Positions 52,007-59,350 of a stretch of DNA of 64,000 bases are shown here, in pieces (within the stretch, counting starts at the first letter, position 1; each line of letters opens with the position of its first letter). The notes under the pieces were generated by a model. That model did not search any database, was not told where the DNA came from, and saw nothing but the letters and a program-made list of their open reading frames with translations. A program made the translations under genes and the position numbers. Origin of the DNA: Actinoplanes derwentensis. GTDB taxonomy: Bacteria; Actinomycetota; Actinomycetes; Mycobacteriales; Micromonosporaceae. The DNA is taken from assembly GCF_900104725.1 (NCBI RefSeq), contig NZ_LT629758.1, positions 6,937,001-7,001,000 on the forward strand, in the 5' to 3' direction.

Positions 52007-52334
52007 TGCACGCTCCTCACGCTCTTTGCCCAACGCTCGCACAACAACGCCCCGACATCGAGTGTTCCCCCGATACGAGGTTGTCAACAAGCCGGTTGAG
52101 CAGCAGCGGGAGGCCGCCGTTTCGTCACGATAAAACTAGTATGTAAATGTTGATCCATAATTTAACGTCGCCGGATTCTCAAGCACCGGAACCGGCGTGC
52201 CGAAACGAAAATGCCGGTGCGACATTGGGGCAACCTGTGCACCGGTCGTGACGTGTCTGTGCTCAACACACAGGTGGCACACAGCAAACGGAAAGCCGGC
52301 GCAGAGCGTGGGTCAGCACAGTGGGGGCATGACG
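52007..52334. promoter_or_regulatory. AT-rich promoter spacer upstream of the PhoP-like regulator
   Basis: 328-base divergent spacer. It includes the most AT-rich stretch noticed in the window (about 52130-52170, with TGATCCATAATTTAAC), a probable promoter core. The candidate PhoP-type box at 52268-52285 lies downstream of it. Confidence 0.5.
52268..52285 (+). promoter_or_regulatory. candidate PhoP-type box upstream of the response regulator
   Basis: ACACAGG, four bases, ACACAGC: two 7-base direct repeats with an 11-base period, close to the mycobacterial PhoP motif TCACAGC-N4-TCACAGC. It lies 50-67 bases before the regulator start, consistent with autoregulation. Confidence 0.55.
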
Positions 52335-53066
52335 ATGGCGAACACCGATCCGAGCACCGAACTCCGGCGTCCCGACGGGACCCCGGTCCGGGTGCTCGTC
52401 GTGGATGACGAACCGACGCTGGCCGAGCTGCTGTCGATGGCTCTGCGCTACGAGGGCTGGGACGTCCGCAGCGCCGGTGACGGCATGACCGCGGTGCGCA
52501 CCGCGCGCGACTTCCGGCCGGACGCCGTCGTCCTGGACATGATGCTGCCCGACATCGACGGGCTCGAGGTGCTGCGCCGCCTGCGCGGGGAGTCGCCCGA
52601 GGTGCCGGTGCTGTTCCTCACCGCCAAGGACTCGGTCGAGGACCGGATCACCGGCTTGACCGCCGGCGGCGACGACTACGTGACCAAGCCGTTCAGCCTG
52701 GAAGAGGTGGTGGCCCGGCTGCGCGGGCTGATGCGTCGGATGGGGCACGCCCCGATGCGCACCGAGTCGCAGCTCGTCGTCGGTGACCTCACCCTGGACG
52801 AGGACTCGCACGAGGTGCGCCGGGCCGGTGACCTGATCACGCTGACCGCCACCGAGTTCGAGCTGCTGCGCTACCTGATGCGCAACCCGCGCCGGGTGCT
52901 GAGCAAGCCGCAGATCCTGGACCGGGTGTGGAACTACGACTTCGGTGGGCAGGCGAACGTGGTCGAGCTCTACATCTCGTACCTGCGCAAGAAGATCGAC
53001 GCCGGTCGCGCGCCGATGATCCACACCATGCGCGGCGCCGGTTACGTGCTGAAGCCGGCCGACTGA
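52335..53066 (+). CDS. OmpR-family response regulator, PhoP-like
   Basis: 243 aa. The receiver domain has Asp24-Asp25 in VVDDEP, phosphoacceptor Asp68 in DAVVLDMMLPDIDG and Lys118 in DDYVTKPFSLEEVVARL. The winged-helix DNA-binding domain has LTATEFELLRYLMRNPRRVL and VWNYDFGGQANVVELYISYL. These stretches are very close to those I know from Mycobacterium tuberculosis PhoP. The ATG at 52335 is eight bases after GGGGG; the ATG at 52329 is too close. The sensor kinase starts four bases after the stop. Matching direct repeats occur here and before two glycosyltransferase genes. Confidence 0.93.
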   Translation: MANTDPSTELRRPDGTPVRVLVVDDEPTLAELLSMALRYEGWDVRSAGDGMTAVRTARDFRPDAVVLDMMLPDIDGLEVLRRLRGESPEVPVLFLTAKDSVEDRITGLTAGGDDYVTKPFSLEEVVARLRGLMRRMGHAPMRTESQLVVGDLTLDEDSHEVRRAGDLITLTATEFELLRYLMRNPRRVLSKPQILDRVWNYDFGGQANVVELYISYLRKKIDAGRAPMIHTMRGAGYVLKPAD

Positions 53067-53069
53067 CCG

Positions 53070-54650
53070 ATGAGTTCCGCCGCCCCGAAAGCCCGCCGCA
53101 CCCGCTGGATCGATCCCGCGGGCTGGCCGCTGCGCACCCGCATCGTCACCACCATGATCGCGCTGCTGGCCGTGCTGGGCCTGGTCGTCGGCGGCACCGC
53201 CGAGCTCTATCTCTACAACTCGCTGCACAAGCAGGTCGACACCGAGGTCGAGGAACTGAGCCGGCGGATCGGTTCCAAGCCGCCGGGAAAGGGCGCATTC
53301 GACAAACACGACGGCCAGCAGGATGACGGCCTCGTCTCCACGAAGAGCACCGACAACCTCCCCGGTGGTATTCCCCGGGACGCGCTGGTCCTCCAGCAAC
53401 TGACGGACGGTTCACTCGACGGCGGTGTGCTCCAGTTCCTGGACACCAGCCCCGACCCCCAGGTTCAGGCCCTGACCGCCGCGGCGCAGACGACCGTGAT
53501 CGCCGAAGTCCCGGCGGATGGCAGGAGGGTCGACGTCTCGGTCGGTGACGGACTTCCCCAGTACCGGATGAAGAAGGTCACCAAGGACGGCAATGTCTAC
53601 TACATCGGGATCTCCCTGGAGGAGTCGAACGGCACTCTTCTGCAGGTCGCCCTCTTCACCGGCTGCGTCATCCTCGGATCGCTGATCATCGCGGGCTGGG
53701 GTGGGGCGCTCATCGTCCGCCGTACCCTCCTGCCTCTGGATCGGGTCGCGGCGACCGCGACCCGCGTCTCCGAACTGCGCCTGGACCGTGGCGAGGTGCA
53801 GCTCGCGCAGCGAGTGCCCGAGCAGGACACCGACCCCCGCACCGAGGTCGGCCAGGTCGGCGCCGCCCTGAACCGGATGCTCGACCACGTCGGCAACGCG
53901 CTGGAGGCGCGGCACGCGAGCGAGATGCAGGTCCGCCAGTTCGTCGCGGACGCCAGCCACGAGTTGCGCACCCCGCTGGCCGCGATCCGTGGTTACGCCG
54001 AGTTGAGCCGCCGCAGCCGCAAGCCGGTCCCGGACGAGATCGCGCACGTGCTGACCCGGGTCGAGTCCGAGGCGAAACGGATGACCGCCCTGGTCGAGGA
54101 CCTGTTGCTGCTGGCCCGTCTGGACGCCGGCCGCCCGCTGGCCCAGGATCCGGTCGACCTGACCATGCTGGCCGTCGACGCGGCGAGCGACGCGCACGCG
54201 GCCGGCCCCCGGCACTACTGGCAGCTGGATCTGCCGGAGGAGCCGGTCACGGTGATCGGCGACGGTGCCCGCCTGCATCAGGTGGTGGCGAACCTGCTGG
54301 CCAACGCCCGCACGCACACGCCGGAGGGTTCGACCGTGACGGTCAAGGTCGGCGCGGTGCCGAACGCCGCCGTGGTCCAGGTGATCGACAACGGCCCGGG
54401 TATCCAGCAGGACCTGGTGCCGCGCATCTTCGAACGGTTCGCCCGTGGTGACAGTTCCCGGTCGCGGGCGGCCGGCAGCACCGGTCTGGGCCTGTCGATC
54501 GTGCACGCCGTGGTCACCTCGCACCGTGGCAAGGTGGGTGTGCAGAGCCGTCCCGGGCAGACCATCTTCACCGTCATGCTGCCGCTCGGCCCTCCGCCGG
54601 TCGTCCCAACAGCTGAACAACGGCCGCAGATGCTGCATCCGGCCCGGTGA
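53070..54650 (+). CDS. sensor histidine kinase, partner of the PhoP-like regulator
   Basis: 526 aa. TM1 at about 24-46, an extracellular sensor of about 145 residues, TM2 at 193-216, HAMP to about 275, HisKA with phosphoacceptor His297 in DASHELRTPLAAIRGY, and HATPase with NLLANARTHTPEG (N box), DNGPGI (G1) and GSTGLGLSIVHAVV (G2). The classical orthodox layout. It follows the regulator by three bases and is surely co-transcribed. The signal is unknown; the sensor has a His/Asp/Lys-rich stretch (FDKHDGQQDDG) that could bind a cation. Confidence 0.94.
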   Translation: MSSAAPKARRTRWIDPAGWPLRTRIVTTMIALLAVLGLVVGGTAELYLYNSLHKQVDTEVEELSRRIGSKPPGKGAFDKHDGQQDDGLVSTKSTDNLPGGIPRDALVLQQLTDGSLDGGVLQFLDTSPDPQVQALTAAAQTTVIAEVPADGRRVDVSVGDGLPQYRMKKVTKDGNVYYIGISLEESNGTLLQVALFTGCVILGSLIIAGWGGALIVRRTLLPLDRVAATATRVSELRLDRGEVQLAQRVPEQDTDPRTEVGQVGAALNRMLDHVGNALEARHASEMQVRQFVADASHELRTPLAAIRGYAELSRRSRKPVPDEIAHVLTRVESEAKRMTALVEDLLLLARLDAGRPLAQDPVDLTMLAVDAASDAHAAGPRHYWQLDLPEEPVTVIGDGARLHQVVANLLANARTHTPEGSTVTVKVGAVPNAAVVQVIDNGPGIQQDLVPRIFERFARGDSSRSRAAGSTGLGLSIVHAVVTSHRGKVGVQSRPGQTIFTVMLPLGPPPVVPTAEQRPQMLHPAR

Positions 54651-54669
54651 TGTGGCTATGCTGGCGGGC

Positions 54670-54741
54670 ATGTCTCGGATGTGGTCCTTCTATTGGTTTA
54701 CGAGGCCGGCTCAAGCCGGTGACTCGGCCATGACCGCATGA
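54670..54741 (+). CDS. leader peptide of the DAHP synthase attenuator
   Basis: 23 codons beginning MSRMWSFYWFTRPAQAG. Residues 5-10 (WSFYWF) are five aromatic residues out of six, two Trp, two Phe and one Tyr. It lies upstream of an intrinsic terminator and the DAHP synthase gene, which opens aromatic amino-acid synthesis. Ribosome stalling here when aromatic tRNAs are scarce would favour an alternative RNA fold and read-through. The Shine-Dalgarno is weak (GGCGGG close to the ATG). The feature is inferred from sequence; no expression evidence. Confidence 0.78.
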   Translation: MSRMWSFYWFTRPAQAGDSAMTA

Positions 54742-54765
54742 CCTGAGACACCCGCCAGAGCCGGC

Positions 54766-54795
54766 AAGGCAGCGACGTCGTCGCTGCCTTTTTGT
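54766..54795 (+). terminator. intrinsic terminator of the DAHP synthase leader (attenuator)
   Basis: AAGGCAGCGAC (54766-54776) pairs with GTCGCTGCCTT (54780-54790) around GTC. A TTTTT run begins at 54789, the best U tract in the window. Competing pairings exist: CCGGCT/AGCCGG at 54706-54719 inside the leader ORF, and AGAGCCGG near 54757-54764 with CCGGCTCT just past the terminator. Confidence 0.85.
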
Positions 54796-54850
54796 TTGCC
54801 CCGAGCAAACCGGCTCTGACGCAGGGCCGGTCGAAGGAGAAGAGAACACC

Positions 54851-55915
54851 ATGACCGCCCCTGAGGTGCAGCGAGTCCGTGATCAGCGGATCGAGAAGGT
54901 CGTCCCGCTGATGAGCCCGGCGCTGCTGCACCACGAGCTGCCGCTGACCAGTGAGTGTCACGACACCGTGCTGGCGGGCCGCAAACAGGTCGAGGACGTG
55001 CTGAACGGCCGAGATCAACGCCTGATCGTGGTCGTCGGCCCGTGTTCGGTGCACGACCCGGTGGCCGCCGGCGAGTACGCGGACCGGCTTCAGCTGGAGG
55101 CCGAGCGGCTGAAGGAGGACCTGCTGATCGTGATGCGGGTGTACTTCGAGAAGCCGCGTTCCACGGTCGGCTGGAAGGGCCTGATCATGGACCCGGCCCT
55201 GGACGGCTCGGGTGACGTCGGCACCGGCCTGCGGATCGCCCGCAAGCTGCTGCTGGAGGTCGTCCAGCGGGGTCTGCCGGTGGCGGTGGAGTTCCTCGAC
55301 CCGATCACCCCGCAGTACATCGCGGACACCGTGGCCTGGGGTGCGATCGGCGCCCGGACGGTGGAGTCGCAGGTGCACCGTCAGCTCTCGTCCGGCCTGT
55401 CGATGCCGATCGGCATGAAGAACCGCCCGGACGGCAGTGTCTCCACCGCGGTCGACGCGATCCAGGCCGCCGAGGCGAAGCATGTCTTCCCGGGGATCGA
55501 CTACTCGGGCACGCCGGCGATCCTGCACACGGCCGGTAACCCGGACTGTCACCTGGTGCTGCGCGGTGGCGGCGGCAAGCCGAACTACAGCGCCGAGCAC
55601 GTCGAGTCGTCGCTGGCGCTGCTGCGCAAGGCGGGCCTGCCGGAGCGTCTGGTGATCGACTGTTCGCACGGCAACAGCAGCAAGGACCACAACCGGCAGC
55701 CGATCGTGGCCGAGGACATCGCGCAGCAGATGGAAGCCGGTCAGCACGCGATCAGCGGCGTGATGCTGGAGAGTTTCCTGGAGCCGGGCCGACAGGACCT
55801 CGGTGGCGAGCTGACGTACGGCCAGTCGGTCACCGACGCCTGCATGGGCTGGGACGCGACGGTGAGTGTGCTGGACCGGCTGGCCGCGGCCTCCGCGAAG
55901 CGGCGCACGGTCTGA
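54851..55915 (+). CDS. 3-deoxy-7-phosphoheptulonate (DAHP) synthase, class I (AroG/F type)
   Basis: 354 aa, the usual class I length. It condenses phosphoenolpyruvate and erythrose 4-phosphate, the first step of the shikimate pathway. Motifs: VVVGPCSVHD, RVYFEKPRSTVGWKG, AIGARTVESQVHRQLSSGLS, MPIGMKNRPDGS, HLVLRGGGGKPNY and VIDCSHGNSSKDH (metal Cys and His ligands). GVMLESFLEPGRQDL ends the active site. GGAG lies before the ATG. The leader peptide with six-residue aromatic block and a terminator precede it, indicating attenuation. A 15-base-pair hairpin ends the gene. Confidence 0.96.
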   Translation: MTAPEVQRVRDQRIEKVVPLMSPALLHHELPLTSECHDTVLAGRKQVEDVLNGRDQRLIVVVGPCSVHDPVAAGEYADRLQLEAERLKEDLLIVMRVYFEKPRSTVGWKGLIMDPALDGSGDVGTGLRIARKLLLEVVQRGLPVAVEFLDPITPQYIADTVAWGAIGARTVESQVHRQLSSGLSMPIGMKNRPDGSVSTAVDAIQAAEAKHVFPGIDYSGTPAILHTAGNPDCHLVLRGGGGKPNYSAEHVESSLALLRKAGLPERLVIDCSHGNSSKDHNRQPIVAEDIAQQMEAGQHAISGVMLESFLEPGRQDLGGELTYGQSVTDACMGWDATVSVLDRLAAASAKRRTV

Positions 55916-55923
55916 ATTGTGCA

Positions 55924-55958
55924 GACCCCTGTGAGTCCGATGGGGACTCACAGGGGTC
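55924..55958. terminator. 15-base-pair hairpin after the DAHP synthase gene
   Basis: GACCCCTGTGAGTCC (55924-55938) pairs perfectly with GGACTCACAGGGGTC (55944-55958). It is nine bases past the stop. Its right arm contains the first repeat of the PhoP-type box. Confidence 0.8.
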
Positions 55959-55976
55959 GCACAGCGGCGGCACAAG
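55948..55976 (+). promoter_or_regulatory. candidate PhoP-type box upstream of the GT39-like gene
   Basis: Three 7-base repeats with an 11-base period: TCACAGG (55948-55954), GCACAGC (55959-55965), GCACAAG (55970-55976). They lie 34-62 bases before the glycosyltransferase start. Confidence 0.6.
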
Positions 55977-56009
55977 GACGCGACAGGGCGCCGACGAACC
56001 GTTGACCGG

Positions 56010-58016
56010 GTGATGACCGCACCACGTACCGGGGCGGCCCGGTGGCTGCTCGGCCGCCACGACGCCCCTTGGATCCGCCCGTCCCTCTACGCCCTGCTGC
56101 TGACCACCGCCGTCCTCTACATCTGGGGGCTGGGCGCGTCGGGCTGGGCCAACGCGTTCTACTCCGCCGCCGTCCAGGCCGGTTCGGAGAGCTGGACGGC
56201 GTTCTTCTTCGGTTCGTCCGACGCGGCCAACGCGATCACCGTCGACAAGACCCCGGCCGCCCTCTGGATCATGGCGCTGTCGGTGCGGATCTTCGGGCTC
56301 AGCTCGTGGAGCATCCTGGTCCCGCAGGCGCTGCTGGGCGTAGCGACGACCGGATTGCTGTTCGCGACCGTACGGCGCGGTTTCGGTCCCGCGGCCGGTC
56401 TGCTCGCCGGTGCGATCTCGGCGCTGACCCCGGTGGCCGTGCTGATGTTCCGCTTCAACAACCCGGACGCGCTGCTGGTGCTGCTGATGGTCGGCGGGGC
56501 GTACTCGATCCTGCGAGCCGTCGAGTCCGGCGCCACGAAGTGGGTGGTGCTGACCGGTGTGCTGGTCGGGTTCGCGTTCCTGGCCAAGCAGTTGCAGGCG
56601 CTGCTGGTGGTTCCGGCGTTCGGTTTGGCCTACCTGATCGCCGGCCCGCCGAAGCTCGGTAAGCGGATCGTCCAGTTGCTGCTGGCACTGGTCGCGATGG
56701 TCGCCTCCGCCGGCTGGTACATCGGCATCGTCGAACTGGTGCCCACGTCGATGCGCCCGTACATCGGTGGTTCGCAGAATAACAGCCTGCTCGAACTCAC
56801 CCTCGGTTACAACGGCCTGGGCCGGCTCAACGGCGAGGAGTCCGGCAGTGTCGGCAACGCGTCGGCCCGGCTGAGCGAGGTCGGCCTGACCCGGCTCTTC
56901 AACAGCGCGCAGGGTGGTCAGATCTCCTGGCTGCTGCCGGCCGCGCTGATCCTGCTGGTCGCCGGACTCGTGATCACCGCTCGGCGGGCCCGCACCGACA
57001 CGCAGCGGGCCGCCCTGATCGTCTGGGGCACCTGGCTGCTGGTCACCGGGCTGATCTTCAGCTACATGCAGGGCATCTTCCACGCGTACTACACGGTGGC
57101 GCTGGCTCCGGCGATCGCCGCGGTGGTCGCGATGGGTGCGGCGCTGCTGTGGAAGCGCCGGGCGGAACTGTTCGCGGCGCTCGCCCTGGCCACGGCGATC
57201 GGGGTGACCGCCTGGTGGTCGTGGACGCTGCTCGGCCGCAGTTCTGACTTCGTGCCGTGGCTGCGCCTGCCGGTGCTGATCGCGGGGCTGCTGGCGGCGG
57301 TCGCGGTGGTCCTCTCGGTCCGGCTCACGGCGCGTCTGGCCCTGGTCGCCGCGACGGTCGCGGCAGTCGCCGGATTGGCAGGACCGGCTGCGTACGCGGT
57401 ACAAACGGCCGCCGAAGCCCACACCGGTTCGATCCCGACCGCCGGCCCGTCGGTCTCCGGTGGACGGGGCGGCGGCATGGCACCCGGCGGCCGAGGCAAC
57501 GGTGGCCCCAGCGGCGGACAGAACGGTCGTACTTTCGGGGGCGGCGCCCCTGGTGGACAGAACGGTCGTTCTGCGGACGGGTCTGAAGGCGCCCAGAACA
57601 GCCGCCCAACCCAGACCGGCCGAAGCTCCCGTGGCGGCAACAGTGGCCTGCTCAACGCGAGCGAGGTCAACACTCAGGTGAAGGCCCTGCTGGAGAACGA
57701 TGCCGACAGTTACACCTGGGTGGCCGCCGCGATCGGTTCACAGAACGCGTCCGGCTATCAGCTGGCCACCGAGGAACCGGTGATGGCGGTAGGCGGTTTC
57801 AACGGCACCGATCCGTCCCCGACGCTGGCGCAGTTCCAGCAGTACGTCACCGACGGAAAGATCCACTACTTCATCGGCGGCGGCGGCTTCGCTCGCAACG
57901 GCGGCAACGGTGGCAGCGACGAGAGTGGCCGGATCTCTGAGTGGGTGGCCGCGAACTTCACCGCCCAGACGGTCGGCGGCACCACCCTCTACGACCTGAC
58001 GACGACCGGCAAGTAG
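56010..58016 (+). CDS. GT39/ArnT-type membrane glycosyltransferase (YkcB-like)
   Basis: 668 aa from GTG (an ATG is the second codon). About twelve hydrophobic segments fill residues 25-475 (YALLLTTAVLYIWGLGASGW, GLLAGAISALTPVAVLMFR). The first loop has the acidic and aromatic pattern of the GT-C superfamily, and VDKTPAALWIMALSVRIFGL matches PMT/ArnT enzymes, which use polyprenyl-phosphate sugars. A Gly/Asn/Gln-rich linker (GGGMAPGGRGNGG) leads to an exported C-terminal domain (about 545-668) of the YkcA/B type (YTWVAAAIGSQNASGYQLAT). It probably glycosylates wall polymer or protein. Its PhoP-type box and the GT2 gene downstream suggest a shared pathway. Confidence 0.9.
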   Translation: MMTAPRTGAARWLLGRHDAPWIRPSLYALLLTTAVLYIWGLGASGWANAFYSAAVQAGSESWTAFFFGSSDAANAITVDKTPAALWIMALSVRIFGLSSWSILVPQALLGVATTGLLFATVRRGFGPAAGLLAGAISALTPVAVLMFRFNNPDALLVLLMVGGAYSILRAVESGATKWVVLTGVLVGFAFLAKQLQALLVVPAFGLAYLIAGPPKLGKRIVQLLLALVAMVASAGWYIGIVELVPTSMRPYIGGSQNNSLLELTLGYNGLGRLNGEESGSVGNASARLSEVGLTRLFNSAQGGQISWLLPAALILLVAGLVITARRARTDTQRAALIVWGTWLLVTGLIFSYMQGIFHAYYTVALAPAIAAVVAMGAALLWKRRAELFAALALATAIGVTAWWSWTLLGRSSDFVPWLRLPVLIAGLLAAVAVVLSVRLTARLALVAATVAAVAGLAGPAAYAVQTAAEAHTGSIPTAGPSVSGGRGGGMAPGGRGNGGPSGGQNGRTFGGGAPGGQNGRSADGSEGAQNSRPTQTGRSSRGGNSGLLNASEVNTQVKALLENDADSYTWVAAAIGSQNASGYQLATEEPVMAVGGFNGTDPSPTLAQFQQYVTDGKIHYFIGGGGFARNGGNGGSDESGRISEWVAANFTAQTVGGTTLYDLTTTGK

Positions 58017-58062
58017 CACAGCGGAGCGTGGTGAGCCCTAGGGCTCACCACGCTCCGCTGTG
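58017..58062. terminator. perfect 22-base-pair palindrome after the GT39-like gene
   Basis: Arms 58017-58038 and 58041-58062 are exact reverse complements around TA. The left arm begins CACAGCGGAGCGTGG. It starts directly after the stop codon. No U tract follows. The right end runs into the PhoP-type box of the next gene. Confidence 0.8.
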
Positions 58063-58065
58063 GAC

Positions 58066-58094
58066 TCACAGGGCCGGCACAGGGCCGCCATAAG
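58066..58094 (+). promoter_or_regulatory. candidate PhoP-type box upstream of the GT2 gene
   Basis: TCACAGG (58066-58072), GCACAGG (58077-58083) and CCATAAG (58088-58094), 11-base period, with the spacer GCCG identical between both pairs. It lies 33-61 bases before the start, the same distance as in the GT39-like promoter. Confidence 0.6.
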
Positions 58095-58126
58095 CTGGGC
58101 AAAGACGCGCGACGGACCTTGGGGAC

Positions 58127-59350
58127 ATGACCCTCTCGACGCTGCCCTCACAGGACACCGGCCGCAGCCGCGTCGGGGCGCCGGTTCTCGACGTGGTGAT
58201 CCCGGTCTACAACGAGGAAGCCGATCTGGAGCCGTGTGTTCGCCGGCTGCACGCTTATCTGGCGGCGAACTTCCCGTACCGGTTCCGGATCACCGTGGCG
58301 GACAACGCGAGCGTCGACGGCACAGCACTGGTGGCACAGCGACTGACCGAGGCGTTCGCCGAAGTCAGCGCGGTCCACCTGGCGGAGAAGGGCCGGGGAC
58401 GGGCGCTCAAGCACGTCTGGTCGCACTCCGACGCCACCGTCCTGGCGTACATGGATGTGGATCTCTCGACCGATCTCGGTGCCCTGCTGCCGCTGGTGGC
58501 GCCGCTGATCTCGGGGCATTCGGACCTGGCGATCGGGTCCCGGCTGGCACGTGGTTCGCGGGTGGTGCGCGGCGCAAAGCGGGAGCTGATCTCCCGGGGT
58601 TACAACCTGATCCTGCGTGGCACGCTGGCCGCACGGTTCTCCGACGCGCAGTGCGGTTTCAAGGCGATCCGGTCCGATGTGGCCGAACGGCTGCTGCCGA
58701 TGGTCGAGGATCCGGGCTGGTTCTTCGACACCGAGCTGCTGGTGCTGGCGGAGCGGGCCGGGCTGCGTATCCACGAGGTGCCGGTGGACTGGATCGACGA
58801 TCCGGACAGCCGGGTCGACATCGTGGCGACCGCGGTGGCGGATCTGAAGGGCATCGTCCGGGTCGCTCGCGCGCTGAGCACCGGCCGTCTGCCGCTGGCC
58901 ACGCTGCGTGCGCAGTTGGGCCGTAATCCGTTGCCGGTGGCGGGTGAGCCGGCCGGGCTGACCGGGCAGCTCATCCGGTTCGCCGGGGTGGGTGTCGCGA
59001 GCACCTTGGCCTACCTGGTCCTTTACGCACTGTTGCGGACCGGGGTGGAAGCTCAGTGGGCCAACCTGTGGGCGCTGCTGCTGACCGCGATGGCCAACAC
59101 GGCCGCCAACCGACGATTGACCTTCGGAGTACGTGGTGGTGACGGTGCTCTGCGGCATCAGGCGCAGGGGCTGGTGGTATTCGGCATCGGTCTCGGGCTG
59201 ACGAGCGGAGCCCTCGCCCTGCTGCACGCCACGGCCGCCGGCGCCCCACGTACCGCCGAATTGATGGTGCTTGTCCTGGCCAACCTGGTGGCCACCGCCG
59301 CGCGCTTCCTGATGTTGCGTATCTGGGTCTTCCGGCCCTCGGCCGGCTGA
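58127..59350 (+). CDS. GT2 polyprenyl-phosphate glycosyltransferase fused to a GtrA-like membrane domain
   Basis: 407 aa. The N-terminal GT2 domain (about 20-255) is of the dolichol-phosphate-mannose-synthase type: VVIPVYNEEADLEPCV, VADNASVDGT, YMDVDLSTDLGALLPLV (DxD), GSRLARGSRVVRGAKRELIS and DAQCGFKAIRS. The C-terminal GtrA domain (about 280-405) has four membrane segments (IRFAGVGVASTLAYLVLYAL, NTAANRRLTFGV). It makes and flips polyprenyl-phosphate sugar, the donor a GT39 enzyme would use, so it pairs logically with the gene upstream. GGGG precedes the ATG. Confidence 0.93.
   Translation: MTLSTLPSQDTGRSRVGAPVLDVVIPVYNEEADLEPCVRRLHAYLAANFPYRFRITVADNASVDGTALVAQRLTEAFAEVSAVHLAEKGRGRALKHVWSHSDATVLAYMDVDLSTDLGALLPLVAPLISGHSDLAIGSRLARGSRVVRGAKRELISRGYNLILRGTLAARFSDAQCGFKAIRSDVAERLLPMVEDPGWFFDTELLVLAERAGLRIHEVPVDWIDDPDSRVDIVATAVADLKGIVRVARALSTGRLPLATLRAQLGRNPLPVAGEPAGLTGQLIRFAGVGVASTLAYLVLYALLRTGVEAQWANLWALLLTAMANTAANRRLTFGVRGGDGALRHQAQGLVVFGIGLGLTSGALALLHATAAGAPRTAELMVLVLANLVATAARFLMLRIWVFRPSAG

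What the first reader, a model, noticed from the sequence alone, without database searches (positions are those of the whole stretch)
52268..58094. Three PhoP-box-like direct repeats link a PhoP-like regulator to two glycosyltransferases
Repeats of a 7-base motif (T/G/A)CACAG(G/C) with an exact 11-base period occur at 52268-52285 (two copies), 55948-55976 (three copies) and 58066-58094 (three, last one degenerate). They precede the PhoP-like response regulator, the GT39-like gene and the GT2-GtrA gene. Mycobacterial PhoP binds TCACAGC-N4-TCACAGC. The two glycosyltransferase boxes are the same distance (33-34 bases) from the start codons. This predicts an autoregulated system that controls polyprenyl-linked glycosylation of the cell envelope.
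Basis: partly seen in the sequence, partly recalled or inferred. Interest (0 to 1): 0.78.

Follow-up and report, generated by a model that had tools for sequence, protein, structure and literature searches.

The report
Conserved four-repeat promoter switch for glycosyltransferases
Three promoters in this actinobacterial genome carry the same four-fold DNA repeat, which is conserved in many related bacteria and very probably lets a relative of the mycobacterial acid-response regulator TcrX switch on itself and two enzymes that put sugars on the cell envelope.

Summary
All three promoters carry four 7-bp elements with an exact 11-bp period. A nAnnnT (-10-like) hexamer lies so that transcription would start at, or within 1 nt of, the start codon. 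The layout is conserved: box score >=10/12 upstream of 33 of 33 close regulator orthologues, 0 of 45 kinases, 0 of 10 aroG. A model trained on 41 promoters from other genomes ranks the two glycosyltransferase promoters first and second in the 10.65-Mb genome (E 4.9e-9, 1.2e-6); a CotH gene is third (0.007). The regulator's name needs changing: it lies outside the clade of M. tuberculosis PhoP, and mycobacterial orthologues are annotated TcrX. Both have nearly the same recognition helix, hence the PhoP-like box. This matters because the TcrX site in M. tuberculosis was published as a mirror repeat, and a 2024 study found no genome-wide consensus. The array is a concrete candidate: 26 of 30 mycobacterial tcrX promoters read have it. 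Binding is untested. Nocardiaceae operons keep the array with drifted letters, suggesting hand-over to PhoP.

The parts
52268..52307 (+). four-element array before the regulator gene (ACACAGG N4 ACACAGC N4 GGAAAGC N4 GCAGAGC)
   Evidence: sequence; close orthologous promoters 33 of 33 (window included) score >=10/12; alignment
52317..52322 (+). -10-like hexamer CACAGT (nAnnnT), A and T at -11 and -7 of ATG 52329
   Evidence: A in 30 of 33 and T in 30 of 33 regulator promoters
52329..53066 (+). response regulator, TcrX orthologue (Response_reg + Trans_reg_C)
   Evidence: tree; names of mycobacterial orthologues; start ATG 52329 chosen by array and -10 (ATG 52335 possible)
53070..54650 (+). sensor histidine kinase (HAMP, HisKA, HATPase_c), presumed TcrY-type partner; no array before it
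   Evidence: 0 of 45 kinases with box; orthology to TcrY not tested apart from position
54851..55915 (+). aroG-type DAHP synthase between kinase and GT39; no array before it, so probably not part of the regulon
   Evidence: 0 of 10 with box
55924..55958 (+). 15-bp perfect inverted repeat after aroG (likely terminator); its right arm overlaps array element 1
55948..55987 (+). four-element array before GT39 (TCACAGG N4 GCACAGC N4 GCACAAG N4 CGACAGG)
   Evidence: held-out model best hit in genome E 4.9e-9
55997..56002 (+). -10-like hexamer AACCGT before GT39
   Evidence: A in 23 of 24 and T in 23 of 24 GT39 promoters
56010..58016 (+). GT39-like membrane glycosyltransferase (PMT_2 + YkcB_C)
   Evidence: GTG 56010 or ATG 56013
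58017..58062 (+). 23-bp perfect inverted repeat directly after GT39 stop, probable terminator ahead of the GT2 array
58066..58105 (+). four-element array before GT2-GtrA (TCACAGG N4 GCACAGG N4 CCATAAG N4 GCAAAGA)
   Evidence: second hit in genome E 1.2e-6
58115..58120 (+). -10-like hexamer GACCTT before GT2-GtrA
   Evidence: A in 35 of 40 and T in 34 of 40 GT2 promoters
58127..59350 (+). GT2-GtrA fusion (Glycos_transf_2 + GtrA_DPMS_TM), probable polyprenyl-phosphate sugar synthase/flippase
   Evidence: role inferred from domains

Best explanation
The arrays are operators of the adjacent TcrX-type response regulator. Phosphorylated regulator protomers bind head-to-tail, one per 7-bp element (11-bp period, so all on one face of the DNA), as two tandem dimers over about -61 to -22 of the start codon. 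They activate a promoter that has a weak -10 (nAnnnT, no T in first place) and no clear -35, and that starts transcription at or next to the start codon (leaderless mRNA). Targets are the regulator's own operon, the GT39 (YkcB-like) gene and the GT2-GtrA gene. The last two would act together: GT2-GtrA charges and flips a polyprenyl-phosphate sugar, and GT39 transfers it to an envelope acceptor outside the membrane. The result is an autoregulated two-component switch for envelope glycosylation, probably answering envelope or acid stress as TcrXY does in M. tuberculosis. Shown here: the arrays, their conservation, spacing and genome-wide specificity, and the grouping with TcrX. Inferred: binding, activation, the start site, the signal, and the sugar chemistry.
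For: Array and -10 letters over 84 promoters with an in-frame start 48-79 nt after the box (of 98 boxed): A at the fifth place of elements 1-4 in 100, 99, 92 and 90%; A at index 50 in 90%, T at index 54 in 97%; start codon at index 61-62 in 66 of 84. By class, A50/T54: regulator 30/30 of 33, GT2 35/34 of 40, GT39 23/23 of 24. Spacings 11/22/33: 24/9/6 in 33 regulator promoters and 31/11/11 in 67 GT2 promoters, shuffles <=0.36. Regulator promoters 33 of 33, kinase 0 of 45, inside-gene controls 0. Held-out model: window sites ranked 1 and 2 in own genome. All 128 distinct sites at E<=0.01 in 30 genus genomes (own included) and 147 other class genomes were inspected: GT39 41, GT2 46, regulator 10 (one only 45% like the window's), CotH 1, other or undeterminable 30; at E<=1e-3, 89 of 94 are GT39, GT2 or regulator (tallied by hand from them). 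Co-occurrence: such sites in 38 of 67 class genomes with TcrX (E<=1e-100) against 6 of 81 without, p 3e-11. Tree and TcrX names. Recognition helix: 5 of the 6 PhoP base-contacting residues kept. The PhoP structure paper reports a tandem dimer on 7 bp + 4 bp and says it can be extended to trimers and tetramers with proper repeats (passage). M. tuberculosis TcrXY is positively autoregulated.
Against: No binding or expression data. The regulator's own promoter in the window is not found by the glycosyltransferase-trained model at E<=10. 4 of 30 genus genomes and 29 of 67 TcrX-bearing class genomes have no model hit; the class scan used stricter filters. Only 24 of 81 GT39 promoters have the box, partly because GT2 comes first in many operons. 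A few other spacer lengths score above shuffles too (9 of 33 regulators with spacer 3, 10 of 68 GT2 with spacer 10). The published TcrX site in M. tuberculosis is a 7-bp mirror repeat, and scrambling it abolished binding, which the direct-repeat model must accommodate. Two of 30 mycobacterial tcrX promoters lost the array (L271, L273). One genome without TcrX (G116) has a site at E 7.7e-5. Promoters of orthologues are related, so counts are not independent, and Fisher values ignore relatedness. The planned control (GT39 genes in genomes without TcrX) did not complete.
Confidence: 0.8

Rival explanations
1. The arrays are sites of another PhoP-clade regulator of the same genome (paralogues at 447814, 8619257 or 324870), and the adjacent TcrX orthologue is not the one that acts on the glycosyltransferases.
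For: Own genome has paralogues of 59, 56 and 54% identity. One (L144) keeps five of the six PhoP base-contact residues, V213 being I. PhoP-clade genes of Mycobacteriaceae and Nocardiaceae genomes carry similar boxes (L132, L133, L135, L136, L143).
Against: The promoters of these three paralogues (L137, L144, L153), and of four Nonomuraea and Streptomyces ones (L138, L139, L145, L152), lack the box (7-9 of 12), while TcrX promoters have it. Sites follow TcrX presence across genomes.
Confidence: 0.1
2. The regulator binds the arrays but represses these promoters (roadblock between -35 and -10), with relief by the signal.
For: Element 4 lies inside the usual -35/-10 spacer (worked out from the sequence).
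Against: The -10 lacks T in first place (0 of 60 aligned promoters) and I see no -35, the mark of activator-dependent promoters. TcrXY in M. tuberculosis is positively autoregulated.
Confidence: 0.12
3. The repeats are chance or by-products of terminator hairpins.
For: Element 1 of the GT39 array lies in the arm of a 15-bp inverted repeat; the exact two-copy pattern alone is at background.
Against: Conserved with fixed 11-bp period and near-fixed distance to the start in several families, also where the genes upstream differ.
Confidence: 0.01

Closest known systems
PhoP of M. tuberculosis and its box TCACAGC-N4-TCACAGC (PMC4832192, passages read)
   Same: 7-bp element, 4-bp spacer, 11-bp period; 5 of 6 base-contact residues identical; tandem head-to-tail reading
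   Different: The window regulator falls outside the clade that holds M. tuberculosis PhoP; four elements at a fixed place before a probably leaderless start; Ser216 is Leu in the window protein
TcrXY of M. tuberculosis (PMC10883919: abstract, section 6 and passages read)
   Same: Same regulator group by tree and annotation; autoregulated promoter; tcrX promoters of genomes taken to be Mycobacterium carry the same array (26 of 30 read at >=10/12)
   Different: Published site is a 7-bp mirror repeat; reported regulon of 70 genes without a consensus motif; 'glycosyltransferase' does not occur in that paper's main text
GT2 + GtrA + GT-C membrane glycosylation sets such as CsbB-GtcA-YfhO and YkcB/YkcC (recalled, not from a call)
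   Same: GT2 and GtrA domains plus a multi-membrane transferase (Pfam PMT_2 and YkcB_C)
   Different: GtrA is fused to the GT2; I found no description of control by a TcrX-type regulator

Membership tests
PhoP (M. tuberculosis type) | same clade as M. tuberculosis PhoP | tested here: not met
   Tree of 69 proteins: window protein in a separate 37-row group (91/97); PhoP (3r0j) groups with Nocardiaceae and Mycobacteriaceae proteins (fork drawn open, long-branch row L134)
PhoP (M. tuberculosis type) | 7-bp CACAG-type direct repeats with 4-bp spacer in its own promoter | tested here: met
   so it works like PhoP on DNA, by sequence, without being PhoP
PhoP (M. tuberculosis type) | base-contacting residues of the recognition helix | tested here: met
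   5 of 6 identical; Ser216 to Leu
TcrX | orthology to mycobacterial TcrX | tested here: met
   Mycobacterium proteins in the window's clade; their close relatives named TcrX by some sources (names as written by annotators; M. tuberculosis protein itself not compared)
TcrX | autoregulation | tested here: inconclusive
   array in the regulator's own promoter in 33 of 33 loci; no expression data
TcrX | acid sensing by the partner kinase | not testable with these tools
   reported for M. tuberculosis
TcrX | 7-bp mirror repeat as binding site | not tested
   its letters are not in the text read; no promoter known to be M. tuberculosis's was read
GT39/YkcB-like transferase | PMT_2 and YkcB C-terminal domain | tested here: met
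Polyprenyl-phosphate sugar synthase with GtrA | GT2 domain plus GtrA domain | tested here: met
   donor sugar and acceptor unknown

The most novel reading that the evidence does not exclude
The four-element direct-repeat array is the ancestral TcrX operator of Actinomycetes, and the ancestral job of TcrX is to control a leaderless envelope-glycosylation regulon (GT39, GT2-GtrA, and in some lineages CotH, DUF4956, Cthe_2159, ferric-reductase, ApbE and HtrA-type genes). In Nocardiaceae, where the two genomes searched have no TcrX-level hit, the glycosyltransferase operon kept the array but its letters drifted towards the CCCAG type, often near a PhoP-clade regulator, that is, the regulon was handed over to PhoP. 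The mirror repeat described in M. tuberculosis would then be a remnant or misreading of a direct-repeat array.
Probability: 0.4. Interest if true: 0.75.

Novelty: new variant of a known kind. Interest (0 to 1): 0.62.

Why it matters
TcrXY is reported to be needed for persistence of the tuberculosis bacterium (abstract), yet the same 2024 study says that two target promoters lack the published site and that a genome-wide screen gave no obvious consensus. It also gives two membrane glycosyltransferases of unknown substrate a likely regulator, and offers a natural case in which layout stays fixed while letters drift, perhaps with the regulator.

Tried and rejected
Exact two-copy pattern genome-wide: at background (14 against 12). 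Three-element pattern with up to 3 mismatches: at background (38 against 43), although its only hits with 0-1 mismatch are the GT39, GT2 and CotH sites. Rfam and sigma-70 scan: nothing bearing on the arrays. PhoP as the name of the regulator: rejected by the tree. TrcR was my guess from memory; dropped when mycobacterial orthologues proved to be named TcrX. L231 was first labelled HK and L289 GT39 by mis-centred scripts; both are GT2 promoters. One search failed on a script error and was repeated. Rows dropped: minus-strand matches and genes with under 120 nt upstream; regulators were split at 68% identity into close (33) and far (11); upstreams over 400 nt; rows under about 200 aa, with stops, or identical; in the 128-site tally two sites read twice (L198/L222, L199/L207) and four own-genome hits above E 0.1 (L158-L161). 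Three of the 30 'other' sites (L317, L324, L331) gave no reading frame to judge. Papers: GtrA + Streptomyces + two-component + polyprenyl, and CotH + GtrA + response regulator: none; PhoPR + TrcR + ChIP-seq + binding motif: none. TcrX + TcrY gave 12 papers, TcrX + Streptomyces 10 (8 listed): only listings seen apart from PMC10883919. Passages only: PMC11895460 on TrcRS, PMC9019756 on the GTTCACC-type PHO boxes of Actinosynnema, PMC7112168 on CotH/DUF4956 accessory genes of Gram-positive Pel clusters.
Full report
WHAT IS THERE. The window is bases 6937001-7001000 of a single 10.65-Mb contig; the closest named loci are from Actinoplanes and allied Micromonosporaceae. The order is response regulator (52329-53066), histidine kinase (53070-54650), DAHP synthase (54851-55915), GT39 with PMT_2 and YkcB_C domains (56010-58016) and a GT2-GtrA fusion (58127-59350). 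The first element lies 61, 62 and 61 nt before the start codons 52329, 56010 and 58127.

IS IT MORE THAN CHANCE. The short pattern is not: KCACAG-N6-CACAG occurs 14 times in the genome against 12 for the reversed pattern, and a three-element pattern with up to 3 mismatches 38 times against 43. Conservation and the full array decide. In 300 nt upstream, a score >=10/12 for TCACAG-N5-GCACAG is met by 33 of 33 close regulator orthologues, 9 of 11 more distant ones, 41 of 68 GT2 and 24 of 81 GT39 genes (window included), but 0 of 45 kinases, 0 of 10 aroG and 0 in all six inside-gene control sets; shuffles give 0-2.1 per set. Seven other spacer lengths reach it at most 9 of 33, 10 of 68 and 8 of 81 times. 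Without any alignment to the motif, ACAG-ACAG distances peak at 11, 22 and 33 (24/9/6 in 33 regulator promoters; 31/11/11 in 67 GT2; 17/12/12 in 81 GT39; 0 in 45 kinases).

ANATOMY. Over the 84 of 98 boxed promoters that have an in-frame ATG or GTG 48-79 nt after the box start, the A in the fifth place of elements 1 to 4 is present in 100, 99, 92 and 90%. Downstream, A at index 50 (90%) and T at index 54 (97%) form nAnnnT. The start codon is at index 61-62 in 66 of 84, which puts A and T at or next to -11 and -7, the places of the two key bases of a -10 element if transcription begins at the start codon. No T is seen at -12 (0 of 60 aligned by start codon), and I see no -35. The same A and T hold separately in regulator, GT2 and GT39 promoters, which stand before unrelated genes. 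I read this as a leaderless, activator-dependent promoter with two tandem dimers upstream; that reading is inference. Many Micromonosporaceae GT39 genes keep array and -10 but have the next in-frame start some 30 nt further down.

GENOME-WIDE SPECIFICITY. A sequence-only model (R1, 57 positions) was built from 41 GT39/GT2 promoters of other genomes, with the window and all regulator promoters left out. In the window's genome the best two hits are the GT39 and GT2 promoters (E 4.9e-9 and 1.2e-6), then a site before a CotH gene (0.007; Pfam CotH), then 0.11. The regulator's own promoter is not hit at E 10. In 30 genus genomes, own included, 26 have a hit at E<=0.01 (65 sites); in 148 class genomes, own included, 44 have one (66 sites, 3 of them the own genome's). 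I looked at the gene after all 128 distinct sites (tally by hand): GT39 41, GT2 46, regulator 10 (one only 45% like the window's), CotH 1, other or undeterminable 30. At E<=1e-3, 89 of 94 are GT39, GT2 or regulator. Part of this is recovery of orthologues of the training set. Independent of training are the regulator promoters, GT39 paralogues of 47-53% identity at other places of same-genus genomes (L204-L206, L208-L210, L215), and a few other genes: ferric-reductase membrane components (L303, L323), DUF4956 (L312), Cthe_2159 (L314), dioxygenase-domain proteins (L211, L322), HtrA-like proteases (L220, L328) and ApbE (L221). Those with E between 0.001 and 0.01 include chance hits; lysyl-oxidase, hemerythrin and other unrelated genes are among them.

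WHO BINDS. The best solved-structure relative is M. tuberculosis PhoP, but in a tree of 69 regulators the window protein falls into a 37-row group apart from the PhoP group. The tool drew that fork open and warned of long branches, L134 among them. Close relatives of the Mycobacterium member are named TcrX by several sources and by generic names in most others (for example M. avium and M. helvum). Of those 30 tcrX promoters, 26 have the box at >=10/12, two more (L255, L274) show the array at 9/12, and two (L271, L273) have lost it. Seven PhoP-clade paralogues in the window's genome, Nonomuraea and Streptomyces have no box in their own promoters (7-9 of 12), whereas five PhoP-clade genes of Mycobacteriaceae and Nocardiaceae do (11 of 12). 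Of the six PhoP side chains reported to read bases, five are the same in the window protein; Ser216 is Leu. Class genomes with TcrX at E<=1e-100 have R1 sites in 38 of 67 cases, those without in 6 of 81 (Fisher p 3e-11; at E<=1e-3, 31 of 67 against 1 of 81). Relatedness of genomes is not corrected for.

LINK TO PRINT. PMC10883919 (abstract, section 6, passages) shows that M. tuberculosis TcrXY is acid-induced and positively autoregulated, describes the site in its promoter as a perfect 7-bp mirror repeat, found that two further target promoters bound by TcrX lack that motif, and reports a genome-wide screen without an obvious consensus. PMC4832192 (passages) gives the tandem PhoP dimer on 7 bp + 4 bp and says it can be extended to trimers and tetramers. 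I found no paper that describes this array or a TcrX-glycosyltransferase link. The library lacks most subscription journals, and the 2011 mirror-repeat paper was not read. No promoter known to be M. tuberculosis's was examined.

HAND-OVER. In 27 GT2 promoters of GT2-GT39 operons of Nocardia, Rhodococcus, Williamsia, allied genera and two mycobacterial loci, the four-element, 11-bp layout persists, in 21 of 27 with its best-scoring start 55-68 nt before the gene start, but many elements are CCCAG-like rather than CACAG-like: [AC]CAG gives 38 pairs at 11 bp and 17 at 22 bp against 0.6 in shuffles. In the two Nocardiaceae genomes searched, the best regulator hits are only 58 and 56% like the window protein, that is PhoP level (G004, G005), and nine of these loci hold a PhoP-clade gene (L020, L034, L049, L058, L059, L064, L067, L075, L086). 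A change of master from TcrX to PhoP is the simplest reading, untested. L045 and L061, included in the 27, come from genomes that do have TcrX (G002, G003).

VERDICT. Observation confirmed and extended; interpretation right in its core (autoregulated box-sharing system over two glycosyltransferases, by sequence) and wrong in the regulator's name and in the number of elements. The kind of site is known; its assignment to TcrX, the four-element leaderless layout and the glycosylation regulon appear new within what I could search.

Noticed in passing
window 58017-58062: Perfect 23-bp inverted repeat with no loop directly after the GT39 stop codon; likely a terminator without a T-run between GT39 and GT2.
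   Followed up: no
window 55924-55958: 15-bp perfect hairpin after aroG whose right arm contains array element 1, so the probable aroG terminator and the GT39 operator overlap.
   Followed up: no
L097:1501-2956 (G000:C1 about 1730299): Third own-genome site lies before a CotH-kinase lipoprotein gene; element 4 is poor and the start codon is 94 nt from the box.
   Followed up: partly
L214, L217, L218, L219, L295: Same-genus genomes share, by eye, an unnamed small protein (no Pfam for L214, the one scanned) with a four-element array before it; the C-terminal half looks like a degenerate receiver domain (my reading).
   Followed up: partly
L303, L323, L312, L314, L221: Array-like sites before ferric-reductase-like membrane proteins, DUF4956, Cthe_2159 and ApbE genes in other class or genus genomes; possibly further TcrX targets.
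   Followed up: partly
L204-L206, L208-L210, L215: GT39 paralogues (47-53% identical to the window's) in same-genus genomes carry the same array, in six of the seven with CATAG in place of CACAG in the first element.
   Followed up: partly
regulator promoters against GT promoters, element 3: The last base of the element-3 core is G in regulator promoters (29 of 33) but less often in GT2 (11 of 40) and GT39 (2 of 24) promoters, where A is common; may tune affinity.
   Followed up: no
L271 and L273, upstream of tcrX: Two mycobacterial genomes lost the array; an upstream reading frame seems to abut tcrX, but the -10-like CATACT remains.
   Followed up: partly
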